Source: Candidatus Gastranaerophilales bacterium (GTDB lineage: Bacteria > Cyanobacteriota > Vampirovibrionia > Gastranaerophilales > Gastranaerophilaceae). From it: a stretch of DNA of 64,000 nucleotides. Shown one piece after another: positions 5,573-9,449 of this stretch. Positions within the stretch are counted from its first letter, which is position 1. Each line of letters begins with the position of its first letter. The translations under genes were made by a program, and so were the position numbers. The stretch covers positions 1-64,000 of the forward strand of contig CALUZA010000004.1 in assembly GCA_944325185.1 (NCBI GenBank), written 5' to 3'. The notes beneath the pieces are model-generated. The model was not told the origin of the DNA. It made no database searches and worked only from the letters and a program-made list of their open reading frames with translations.

Positions 5573-5608
5573 GGGATGTAGCAGGGACCCCAGAGCGAAG
5601 CGGTGGGG
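5573..5608. repeat. 36-bp repeat of tRNA-Pro 5' end joined to GC-rich tail, copy 1
   Basis: It begins with GGGATGTAGC, which is the start of tRNA-Pro, and continues into ACCCC...GGGG hairpin-capable sequence with GAGCGAAGCGG in the loop. It is identical to 5667-5702. Confidence 0.88.
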
Positions 5609-5613
5609 GTGCG

Positions 5614-5676
5614 CAAATCCCGAGAGATAAAAAACAAAACCAAATTTGACAACTGAATATATTTTCGGGATGTAGC
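5614..5676. repeat. 63-bp direct repeat, copy 1 (tRNA-Pro flank)
   Basis: This matches 5823-5885 with only two substitutions. The unit consists of CAAATCCCGAG (resembling a tRNA-Pro 3' end), an AT-rich spacer, and CGGGATGTAGC (the tRNA-Pro 5' end). It therefore links the end of one degenerate unit with the start of the next. Confidence 0.9.
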
Positions 5677-5822
5677 AGGGACCCCAGAGCGAAGCGGTGG
5701 GGAACCCGAAACGAGTAAGTTATAGTTCGCAGGGCGAACTTAACGAACGAAGTTGAGGGCAGATGTGTGCGAAGGGCGTGACGATGAAGCGTTGAGCTTC
5801 AGCGAACAGCCCGTAGACCGTA
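5667..5822. repeat. second degenerate tRNA-Pro-like unit with GC-rich insert
   Basis: The first 36 bases repeat 5573-5608 exactly. They are followed by about 120 bases of GC-rich, hairpin-rich sequence (for example GAAGC-GTTGA-GCTTC near 5787) quite unlike the surrounding AT-rich DNA. Short reading frames on the minus strand here are by-products of the high GC and are not called as genes. Confidence 0.7.
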
Positions 5823-5885
5823 CAAATCCCGAGAGATAAAATACAAAACCAAATTTGACAATTGAATATATTTTCGGGATGTAGC
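5823..5885. repeat. 63-bp direct repeat, copy 2 (runs into tRNA-Pro)
   Basis: Second copy of the flank repeat, offset by 209 bases from the first. Its last 11 bases are the first 11 bases of the functional tRNA-Pro. Confidence 0.9.
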
Positions 5886-5948
5886 GCAGCTTGGTAGCGC
5901 ACCTCGCTTGGGACGAGGGGGTCGCAGGTTCAAATCCTGTCATCCCGA
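5875..5948 (+). tRNA. tRNA-Pro (TGG anticodon)
   Basis: A 74-nt cloverleaf with acceptor CGGGATG/CATCCCG, D-arm GCGC...GCGC, anticodon stem CCTCG/CGAGG around loop CTTGGGA (anticodon TGG), T-arm GCAGG-TTCAAAT-CCTGT and discriminator A. CGGGATGTAGCGCAGC is the usual tRNA-Pro beginning. CCA is not encoded. A T-run follows directly and may act as the transcription end. Confidence 0.96.
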
Positions 5949-6119
5949 TTTTTTGTTAAAAAATCAGGATTCCATGTTGAACCTACGGTTAGCTCGTCAA
6001 CAAATCGAATTGTTCGCTTTTTTCAAAAGCTCACAGTCGTTTTGTAAGACTCTGCATACTAATTTATAAAATTGCTAAAATAATTGAAAATACAACATTA
6101 TTTATGCAATAATCTTATA

Positions 6120-7481
6120 ATGATAATTTACTCTGATAAATATTTCAAAGAACCCAAAAAAGTAATTGTAGCATTTGACGACAAAGAATTTAAAAAGCAT
6201 TTTATGAAATAGAAAAACTGAAAAAGACAAGCTATTTAGTTGGATATATAAGATACGAAGCAAAAGATATTTTTCTTGGAGGCAAATTAAAATCAAAAAA
6301 GCCACTTTTATATTTTGAGGTGCATGATTCTTATGAAAAATTTGACGCTAATACAGAAAAACCACCAGTTTATTTGGAAGTTCATCCTCAAATAACATAC
6401 AAGGAATATAAGAATGCAATAAAAAAAATAAAAAAAGAAATTTCATTGGGTAATACTTATGAGGTTAATTACACATGTGGCTTTAATATCAATACAAGCT
6501 CTGCACCCGAAGAAATATTCTACAATTTAATACATTCTCAAAATACTCCATATTGCGCATTAATAAAAAATAAATACGAAGATATTGTTTCATTTTCTCC
6601 TGAATTATTTTTTAAGAAAAATGGAAACAATATACTCACTAAACCAATGAAAGGAACAATAAAAAGAGGTCTTGATGCAAAACAAGATAAAAAGCTAAAA
6701 CTTTTTTTACAAACAGATAAGAAGAACAGAGCAGAAAAAGTAATGATTGTAGATTTATTAAGAAATGATCTTGCCAAGATTGCCAAAGTTGGTTCAGTAG
6801 AGGCTACAAAACTTTTTGATATAGAAACCTATGAAACCCTACATCAAATGAGCTCTGAAATTGTTGCGCAGCTTCCCAAAAATATAAAATATTGGGATAT
6901 ATTTAATTCTTTATTTCCATGTGGTTCTATTACAGGTGCGCCCAAAATAAGCACTATGAAAATTATTGATAAATTAGAAAAAGGGAAAAGAGATGTTTAT
7001 TGCGGTGCAATTGGCTATATCTATAAAGATTTTTCTGAATTTTCGGTGCCAATTAGAATTATGCAAAAAAATCATTCAAAAAATGTATATAGATACAGAG
7101 CTGGCGGGGCAATAGTATGGGATTCTCGTTATGATGATGAATGGAGAGAAGTCATTTTGAAAACTTCATTTTTAACAAACAATAGAAAAAATTGGAAACT
7201 TTTTGAAACAATCTTGATTAAAAACTTAAAACCGAAATTTTGGAATGAACACATCTTTCGAATGAAAAACTCAGCAATTAATTTGGGATATTATAATAAA
7301 AAAGGAAAATAAATACTATACTCCGCATTTATCAAGCGGGCTTTTAAACGGAATTTTTAGACAACAATTTATCAAATCAATGGGTTGCATTGAAAAAATT
7401 CTATATCTTGAAGACTTAAAATCTGCCGATAAAATATATTGTGTTAATTCGGTACGCGGTATGAAAGAGGTTTTTTTATGA
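6120..7481 (+). pseudogene. pabB: decayed pabB-pabC fusion (aminodeoxychorismate synthase component I / lyase)
   Basis: In its intact form this would join chorismate amination (PabB) to aminodeoxychorismate lyase (PabC) for 4-aminobenzoate and folate. The N-terminus reads from ATG 6120 to a premature TAG at 6210-6212. Adding one T to the CATTTTATG run near 6203 would continue the protein as ...KHFYEIEKLKK into the next frame, which then stays open to 7312. That part keeps the chorismate-binding core, with KPMKGTIKRG, DLLRNDLAKI and GSITGAPK. It then enters the PabC start (FETILIKN...WNEHIFRMKNSA) and stops. The PabC end (TPHLSSGLLNGIFRQ to NSVRGMKEVFL) reappears in another frame up to TGA 7479-7481. 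The middle, roughly 120 residues by comparison with usual PabC length, is missing. Translation from ATG 6320 could still yield a shortened PabB core. Confidence 0.85.
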
Positions 7482-8044
7482 TTTTAATAGATAACTATGA
7501 TTCATTCACGTATAATATTGTCCAATATCTTAATAAGCTCGGTGTATTTCCTCGTGTAATTAAAAATGACGAAATGTCAGTTGCTAATCTTGAAAAATTT
7601 AATTTCAATTCAATAATAATATCGCCAGGGCCCGGAAATCCAAATAAAGCAGGAATTTGTATGAAGGTTATTGATAAATTTAAAATATCAAAAAAAATAT
7701 TAGGTGTTTGTTTAGGATTTCAATGTATATGTCAATACTATGGTGCAAAAATAATAAAAGATTCAGAACCAATGCATGGAAAAGTGTCTAAAATAAAACT
7801 TACAAATAAATCAATATTATTCAGAAATATCCCCAATAAATTTTATGCAACAAGATATCACTCGCTTATTGCCGACAATAATACCATAAAATCACCATTA
7901 AAGATAACTGCTCTCACTTGCGATAAAAATATTGTTATGGGTGTTGAACATAAAAATTTGCCTATATATGGTGTACAATTTCATCCAGAAGCCATTTTAA
8001 CAGAATACGGTATTGATATATTAATGAATTTTATTTCTGCTTAG
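7478..8044 (+). CDS. pabA: aminodeoxychorismate/anthranilate synthase glutamine amidotransferase
   Basis: 188 residues, the usual PabA/TrpG length. It hydrolyses glutamine and passes ammonia to PabB or TrpE. Visible class I GATase features are IDNYDSFTYN at 4-13, ISPGPGNP at 48-55, the nucleophile elbow GVCLGFQ with Cys78, RYHSL, and the His-x-Glu of FHPEAILTEYG near the end. Its ATG overlaps the TGA of the decayed pabBC gene (ATGA), a sign of old translational coupling. The reading frame is intact although its partner is broken. It may survive by serving another synthase (for example TrpE) elsewhere. Confidence 0.9.
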   Translation: MILIDNYDSFTYNIVQYLNKLGVFPRVIKNDEMSVANLEKFNFNSIIISPGPGNPNKAGICMKVIDKFKISKKILGVCLGFQCICQYYGAKIIKDSEPMHGKVSKIKLTNKSILFRNIPNKFYATRYHSLIADNNTIKSPLKITALTCDKNIVMGVEHKNLPIYGVQFHPEAILTEYGIDILMNFISA

Positions 8045-8111: not shown

Positions 8112-9362
8112 TCAATAACAATATCCAAGTAATCTTCGTATTTCTTTTTCAGCTAATTTGTATGCATTTGGTTGAGAATAGTGTTTAGCTAAAATCTCTG
8201 CAAGTAATGAAATTGATAAGCCTTGTTCATTATCACCATATATATAATAGAGTTTTTCTAGATCAATTTTATAATATGAATTTCGAATCAAACTTTTTGG
8301 AGTGTTTCGTGTAAATTCAGAGGCTGCAACTGCAATTTCTCTTTTGGACATATTTTTTCTGGCAGCCATTCTGGTTATATCATTATAATAATCCAAATAT
8401 AAGAGTTTATAAACCGAACTCAACCCATCTGTTTCAAGTTTACAAATTTCAATAACTGCTTCAATATCAAATTTACCTTGAAATGCTTCAGTATTATAAT
8501 GCTCTTCCAGTATATTTAAAAATCTTTTTCTTAAATATTCAGGTTGTTTGAAAGAAAAATTTATAAAACGCATTAATTCATTTTCATCAAGTCTTTTAGA
8601 GTTAATTTTGTCAGTAAGAAGATTCATAATGATTTCAAATTTAGATTTATCGATTTTTTGAGGATTTTTTTCTGACATTGACATATTCGCAAGCAATAAA
8701 GCTGTTTTAGGACAAATTTTAGTTTTAGAGAAAAAGTAATATTCGCACAAAGCTTCCAGCTTTTCTATGTTAGTCCCATACGAAATACTGCCGTCACTTT
8801 CTTTTGTAGAATTCATTTTTTTTGCTATATAAATAGCGCTACCTTCATCAATTTTTCGATTAGGATGTTCATTTGCCCTAAAATTATTCAAAAAAGTTGC
8901 CACATTAATATCATCATCACTAACATCCCGATCTAAATGAGCTAAAGCAATCCTGGAAGCAAGATTAGCGCTAATCGACCCATTTGGAGTTATTTTACTA
9001 TACAATTTATTAGAATAATCTAAATATTGCTCAATATCTTTTGGTGCTACGATTTTTGAATCATACGCAGTTTGTAAAAATTCTAGTAAAGCTTGAAAGT
9101 CTGAATTTTTTGAATAAATAGAGCATAATGTCTTAGCAGTTTTTCCAGATATCGAGTTAATATCTAATTTATGAAATAATATTCGTAACTTAACGAGCTC
9201 TAAACCACTCAGGCCATATTTTTGAAGTTGTTGATATAACTGAGACGGTTTAATTTTTTTGTTTTCTTTTTTTTCAAAGGAATCTCTGCTGCAAAAATTA
9301 ATTTTAGCTAGCCTGGTATGATTTATCGGATAATTTTTTTGTAAAAAAGGAGTTATCTTCAT
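8112..9362 (-). CDS. hypothetical helical protein with MKI...INF N-terminal tag
   Basis: 416 residues, family not recognised. No signal peptide or membrane segment is visible once the start is set at ATG 9362. A longer frame adds a 20-residue hydrophobic stretch, but its start lies in AT-rich leader. The protein looks all-helical and charged throughout and could be a repeat solenoid. Its start (MKITPFLQKN...AKINFCSRDSF) resembles those of the hypothetical protein at 17859 and the CheR-like protein at 60612. The pseudopilin terminator lies upstream, so it is probably its own transcription unit. Confidence 0.7.
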   Translation of the reverse strand: MKITPFLQKNYPINHTRLAKINFCSRDSFEKKENKKIKPSQLYQQLQKYGLSGLELVKLRILFHKLDINSISGKTAKTLCSIYSKNSDFQALLEFLQTAYDSKIVAPKDIEQYLDYSNKLYSKITPNGSISANLASRIALAHLDRDVSDDDINVATFLNNFRANEHPNRKIDEGSAIYIAKKMNSTKESDGSISYGTNIEKLEALCEYYFFSKTKICPKTALLLANMSMSEKNPQKIDKSKFEIIMNLLTDKINSKRLDENELMRFINFSFKQPEYLRKRFLNILEEHYNTEAFQGKFDIEAVIEICKLETDGLSSVYKLLYLDYYNDITRMAARKNMSKREIAVAASEFTRNTPKSLIRNSYYKIDLEKLYYIYGDNEQGLSISLLAEILAKHYSQPNAYKLAEKEIRRLLGYCY

Positions 9363-9449
9363 AATATTAAAATAAAATACTAAACAATTTATATAAAACA
9401 AAACAATTGTCAAAATTGCCAATTGACAATATATTTATTTTGCATAAAA

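What the first reader, a model, noticed from the sequence alone, without database searches (positions are those of the whole stretch)
6120..7481. pABA synthesis gene pabB-pabC in decay while pabA stays intact
One missing T near 6203 breaks the N-terminus; restoring it joins the two frames into good PabB sequence. A second lesion removes the middle of the PabC domain and shifts frame. The PabC end still overlaps the pabA start by ATGA. The strain may depend on external pABA or folate, or use pabA with another synthase.
Basis: seen in the sequence. Interest (0 to 1): 0.7.

Follow-up and report, generated by a model that had tools for sequence, protein, structure and literature searches.

The report
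Decaying pABA synthesis gene, folate pathway retained
This gut bacterium carries a broken copy of the only gene that could make the folate building block pABA, yet keeps the enzymes that use pABA; most of its relatives have lost the same gene, so they probably take pABA from their neighbours or the diet.

Summary
Window 6120-7478 holds a PabB-PabC fusion gene broken twice: a frame change near 6200, and a deletion at about 7290 that removes about 97 codons of the PabC domain, including its PLP lysine. pabA (7478-8044) is intact. The genome (1.74 Mb draft in 63 contigs, 94% complete) has no second chorismate-binding enzyme and no second class IV aminotransferase, but keeps dihydropteroate synthase (folP), folK and chorismate synthase. 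Intact 525-630-residue orthologs exist elsewhere in the same family (Gastranaerophilales, by one named relative). Of 288 family genomes only 71 have a PabB-PabC gene, while 274 have folP. In the genus, 3 of 28 have one and all three are broken, in different places. Across the family I found eight broken copies with different lesions. So pABA synthesis is being lost repeatedly while folate assembly is kept. The known alternative enzyme (CADD family) was not found in the genus. The most likely consequence is dependence on external pABA. This is a known metabolic variant ('pABA source?' genomes), here caught mid-decay in a lineage reported to have a complete folate pathway. Read-level confirmation, growth tests, and an unknown pABA route remain open.

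The parts
6120..6202 (+). N-terminal 27 codons of PabB, in a frame different from the rest; frame change within about 6195-6205
6203..7291 (+). PabB core (chorismate-binding domain, lysine of KPMKGT kept) and the first part of the PabC domain, one open frame that runs on to the stop at 7310-7312
7286..7312 (+). Deletion junction in PabC: about 97 codons missing relative to intact relatives, PLP lysine included, with frame switch
7290..7481 (+). Remnant C-terminus of PabC (63 residues, Aminotran_4 positions 155-220), overlapping the pabA start
7478..8044 (+). pabA, glutamine amidotransferase subunit, intact 188 aa (GVCLG cysteine and FHPE histidine/glutamate present)

Best explanation
A pabB-pabC/pabA operon that is intact in many members of the family has become a pseudogene in this strain. 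The genome keeps chorismate synthase, HPPK (folK) and DHPS (folP), so the cell most likely builds folate by joining its own pterin to pABA taken from outside (other gut bacteria or diet). With pABA available, selection to keep pabB-pabC is relaxed. The gene decays by small frame changes, nonsense changes and internal deletions, independently in several relatives, and pabA persists for a while as an orphan. Shown: the lesions, no second copy in the draft genome, retained folP, folK and aroC, and different lesions in relatives. Inferred: the uptake of pABA, and that loss of function is complete.
For: Only one Chorismate_bind and one Aminotran_4 match in the whole draft genome, both this locus. 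folP in 27 of 28 genus genomes and 274 of 288 family genomes; folK and aroC in 26 of 28; the window strain has all three. PabB-PabC in 3 of 28 genus genomes and 71 of 288 family genomes (my count after removing 20 TrpE-type hits, of which four were checked by their trpE-trpG neighbours and one by HMM). Eight broken copies with distinct lesions: window; G015 (N-terminal frame change and broken pabA); G007 (in-frame TAA; copy on a 3.8-kb contig); G258, G220, G233, G237; G123. Window PabB differs at 11 of 143 positions near-invariant in intact relatives, against a typical 0-4 of about 155. The deleted part contains the lysine conserved in all 30 relatives. No CADD-family pABA synthase in any of 28.
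Against: Draft genome, 94% complete: a second pabB or pabC could lie in the missing 6%. Reads were not seen. One intact-frame relative (L112) also departs at 11 of 156 conserved positions, so the relaxed-constraint signal alone is not decisive. folE, folB, folC, DHFR and folate or pABA transporters were not searched. The PabB core could still be made from an internal start.
Confidence: 0.85

Rival explanations
1. The strain makes pABA by an unknown or non-homologous route, so the loss of pabB-pabC costs nothing and no outside pABA is needed.
For: folP is kept almost universally while PabB-PabC is absent in about three quarters of family genomes. A large survey of gut genomes raises unknown pABA routes as one explanation for such genomes (PMC6593275).
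Against: The one known alternative family, CADD, is absent from the genus. The recurrent and ongoing decay is equally explained by uptake, and Lactobacillus strains of this type make folate only when given pABA (PMC6593275).
Confidence: 0.08
2. The frame change and deletion are assembly errors and the gene is intact in the organism.
For: Metagenome-type draft in 63 contigs; no reads available; the first lesion lies in a short A/T-rich run.
Against: A clean deletion of about 97 codons inside a 74-kb contig is not a typical error. Broken copies with other lesions recur in relatives. The window PabB carries extra changes at conserved positions.
Confidence: 0.05
3. Partial function is kept: the PabB core (restart at an internal start such as GTG 6320) still makes aminodeoxychorismate with PabA, and an unrelated enzyme supplies the lyase step.
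For: The chorismate-binding domain is complete, its active-site lysine motif KPMKGT is kept, and PabA is intact.
Against: The start-proximal ~67 residues would be lost; no other class IV aminotransferase in the genome; changes at 11 of 143 conserved positions.
Confidence: 0.05

Closest known systems
PabB-PabC fusion aminodeoxychorismate synthase/lyase (TIGR00553 pabB, NF005698 PRK07508, with Aminotran_4 PF01063)
   Same: Domain order PabB-PabC followed by overlapping pabA; best NCBIfam matches are PabB models; intact relatives of 525-630 aa. PabB-PabC (PabAa-PabAc) fusion is a common arrangement (PMC1971073).
   Different: Broken here by a frame change and by a PabC deletion that removes the PLP lysine; scores just under the TIGR00553 cut-off (325 against 328.4).
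Folate pathway variant lacking only pABA synthesis ('P, pABA source?' in PMC6593275; 49 Firmicutes missing only the PABA branch in PMC4403557)
   Same: folP and folK kept, pABA branch lost.
   Different: Different lineage (Gastranaerophilales), and the decaying gene is still visible; the rest of the folate pathway was not checked here.
CADD self-sacrificing pABA synthase (TIGR04305)
   Same: Would explain folate synthesis without pabABC.
   Different: Not found in any of 28 genus genomes.

Membership tests
Functional PabB-PabC bifunctional enzyme | Uninterrupted reading frame over both domains | tested here: not met
   Frame change near 6200 and frame switch at about 7290
Functional PabB-PabC bifunctional enzyme | Complete chorismate-binding domain with active-site lysine motif | tested here: met
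   PF00425 3-257 of 257; KPMKGT lysine kept
Functional PabB-PabC bifunctional enzyme | PabC domain with PLP lysine | tested here: not met
   Deleted with about 97 codons; lysine in all 30 relatives. That this lysine binds PLP is my knowledge of class IV aminotransferases.
pABA-dependent folate synthesis variant | No pabB or pabC elsewhere in genome | tested here: met
   (draft genome, 94% complete)
pABA-dependent folate synthesis variant | DHPS (folP) and HPPK (folK) present and uninterrupted | tested here: met
   G000:C27
pABA-dependent folate synthesis variant | folE, folB, folC, DHFR present | not tested
pABA-dependent folate synthesis variant | Growth requires external pABA | not testable with these tools
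   Needs culture
CADD-type pABA synthesis | CADD-family protein in genome | tested here: not met
   0 of 28 genomes

The most novel reading that the evidence does not exclude
Gastranaerophilales genomes that keep folP but lack pabB-pabC make pABA by an enzyme that is neither PabABC nor CADD, and the window strain is one that switched to it recently.
Probability: 0.07. Interest if true: 0.7.

Novelty: new member of a known kind. Interest (0 to 1): 0.33.

Why it matters
An early genome paper on these gut bacteria (Di Rienzi et al. 2013, PMC3787301) reported complete folate pathways in Melainabacteria and proposed them as a vitamin source for the host. The survey here suggests that most genomes of this family lack the pABA branch and would depend on others for it, and the half-decayed genes show that the loss happened more than once and is recent in some lineages. 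That makes pABA exchange in the gut, and what keeps or drops the branch, directly testable in this family.

Tried and rejected
PabA serving a TrpE: no TrpE in the genome; one genus member (G021) has a separate trpEG fusion. A conserved programmed frameshift at the N-terminus: rejected, since intact relatives have one frame and the broken copies are broken at different places. Shared ancestral lesion in the genus: rejected, the three lesions differ. Searching public genome contigs with the window protein gave no relative; with the alignment it gave a named record matching G015 (Candidatus Gastranaerophilales isolate, L065) and distant phyla. Synteny by the downstream gene (8112-9422) failed: that gene has only one relative in the genus. 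Rfam found only the tRNA upstream.

Full report
Observation. The window lies in contig C4 of a 1.74-Mb draft genome (63 contigs, 93.9% complete, 0.2% contamination). A PabB start is open from 6120 to the stop at 6210. Good PabB sequence continues in another frame from about 6203 to 7312. The last 63 residues of PabC lie in a third segment up to the pabA start at 7478. Pfam and NCBIfam place the pieces as the complete chorismate-binding domain (PF00425, 3-257 of 257, E 1.5e-81), the last third of an aminotransferase class IV domain (PF01063, 155-220 of 223) and a complete glutamine amidotransferase. An intact relative's protein hits the window in three pieces that are collinear at 53-60% identity: residues 3-32, 28-398 and 490-551 of 554.

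The lesions. The first is a change of frame in the stretch 6195-6205. The second, at about 7290, removes 87-104 codons (median 97) relative to 30 related genes, and also shifts the frame. The missing part contains a lysine present in all 30 relatives; from knowledge of class IV aminotransferases this is the PLP lysine, so the lyase domain cannot work. The PabB active-site lysine motif KPMKGT is kept. At positions near-invariant in intact relatives the window PabB differs at 11 of 143, G015 at 14 of 147, G007 at 4 of 109, while intact relatives mostly differ at 0-4 of about 155, with one at 11. PabA differs at 2 of 59, as in intact relatives. So pabB-pabC looks released from constraint, and pabA not yet measurably so.

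No second copy. Over the whole draft genome there is one match to PF00425 and one to PF01063, both this locus. So no TrpE, no isochorismate synthase, no second PabB and no second PabC were found. The pathway around it is kept: DHPS with an uninterrupted 388-residue gene, HPPK and chorismate synthase.

Relatives. In the genus (28 genomes), a PabB-PabC gene is found in three: the window, G015 and G007. G015 has an N-terminal frame change and a broken pabA. G007 has an in-frame TAA, on a 3.8-kb contig that ends inside the gene, so this one is weaker evidence. The fourth genus hit, G021, is a TrpE-TrpG fusion followed by trpD. One named public record equals G015: a Candidatus Gastranaerophilales MAG (L065).

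In the family (288 genomes sampled), 94 have a match. From the listed scores and frame lengths I count 71 of PabB-PabC type, 20 of TrpE type only and 3 very short. Four of the TrpE type were read and are followed by trpG, and one was confirmed by HMM. DHPS is found in 274 of the same 288. Most PabB-PabC genes have long open frames, so the intact form is ancestral or at least common in the family. Further broken copies: G258 (frame change near residue 204, pabA intact), G220 (frame change near residue 90, pabA intact), G233 (residues 55-516 deleted, pabA intact), G237 (PabB residue 336 joined to PabA residue 51), and G123 (frame change in PabC beside the lysine, pabA intact). With the window, G015 and G007 this makes eight broken copies, all broken differently. 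All are draft genomes.

Mechanism. The best explanation is recurrent loss of the pABA branch with the DHPS step kept: the cell takes pABA from its surroundings and makes folate from it. The known alternative pABA enzyme, CADD (TIGR04305), is absent from the genus. Uptake is inferred and not shown.

What is known. PabB-PabC fusions are common (PMC1971073). Gut genomes with all folate enzymes except pABA synthesis are well documented, with pABA salvage or unknown routes as the two proposed explanations (PMC6593275; PMC4403557). For these bacteria the early genome paper reported complete folate pathways (PMC3787301). The finding is therefore a new member of a known kind. Its added value is the snapshot of ongoing, repeated decay in a lineage described as folate-producing.

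Noticed in passing
window 5573-5885 (repeat query 5573-5830), upstream of tRNA-Pro(TGG) 5874-5949: A dispersed repeat with about 25 matches in the own genome and matches in 23 of 28 genus genomes, often near contig ends. Two copies here carry what look like the first ~10 bases of the tRNA-Pro gene beside them, and three of the six copies read have a tRNA-Pro(TGG) next to them. Not in Rfam.
   Followed up: partly
L103-L111 (G277, G235, G099, G121, G051, G202, G117, G284, G158): Nine draft genomes assigned to five genera share a pabBC-pabA region that is 86-99.9% identical in patches, mostly on short contigs: recent transfer or recombination of a working pab region, or misbinned contigs.
   Followed up: partly
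L118 3618-4957 (G237): Deletion that joins the middle of pabB to the middle of pabA.
   Followed up: partly
L025 1117-2283 (own genome C27) and family-wide: DHPS has an N-terminal extension of about 128 residues before the DHPS domain; open frames of about 380-430 residues throughout the family.
   Followed up: no
L006 (G021): One genus member has a TrpE-TrpG fusion followed by trpD, while the window genome has no anthranilate synthase and is probably a tryptophan auxotroph.
   Followed up: no
window 8112-9422: A 436-aa gene next to pabA with only one relative in the genus (G008, 31% identity), function unknown.
   Followed up: no
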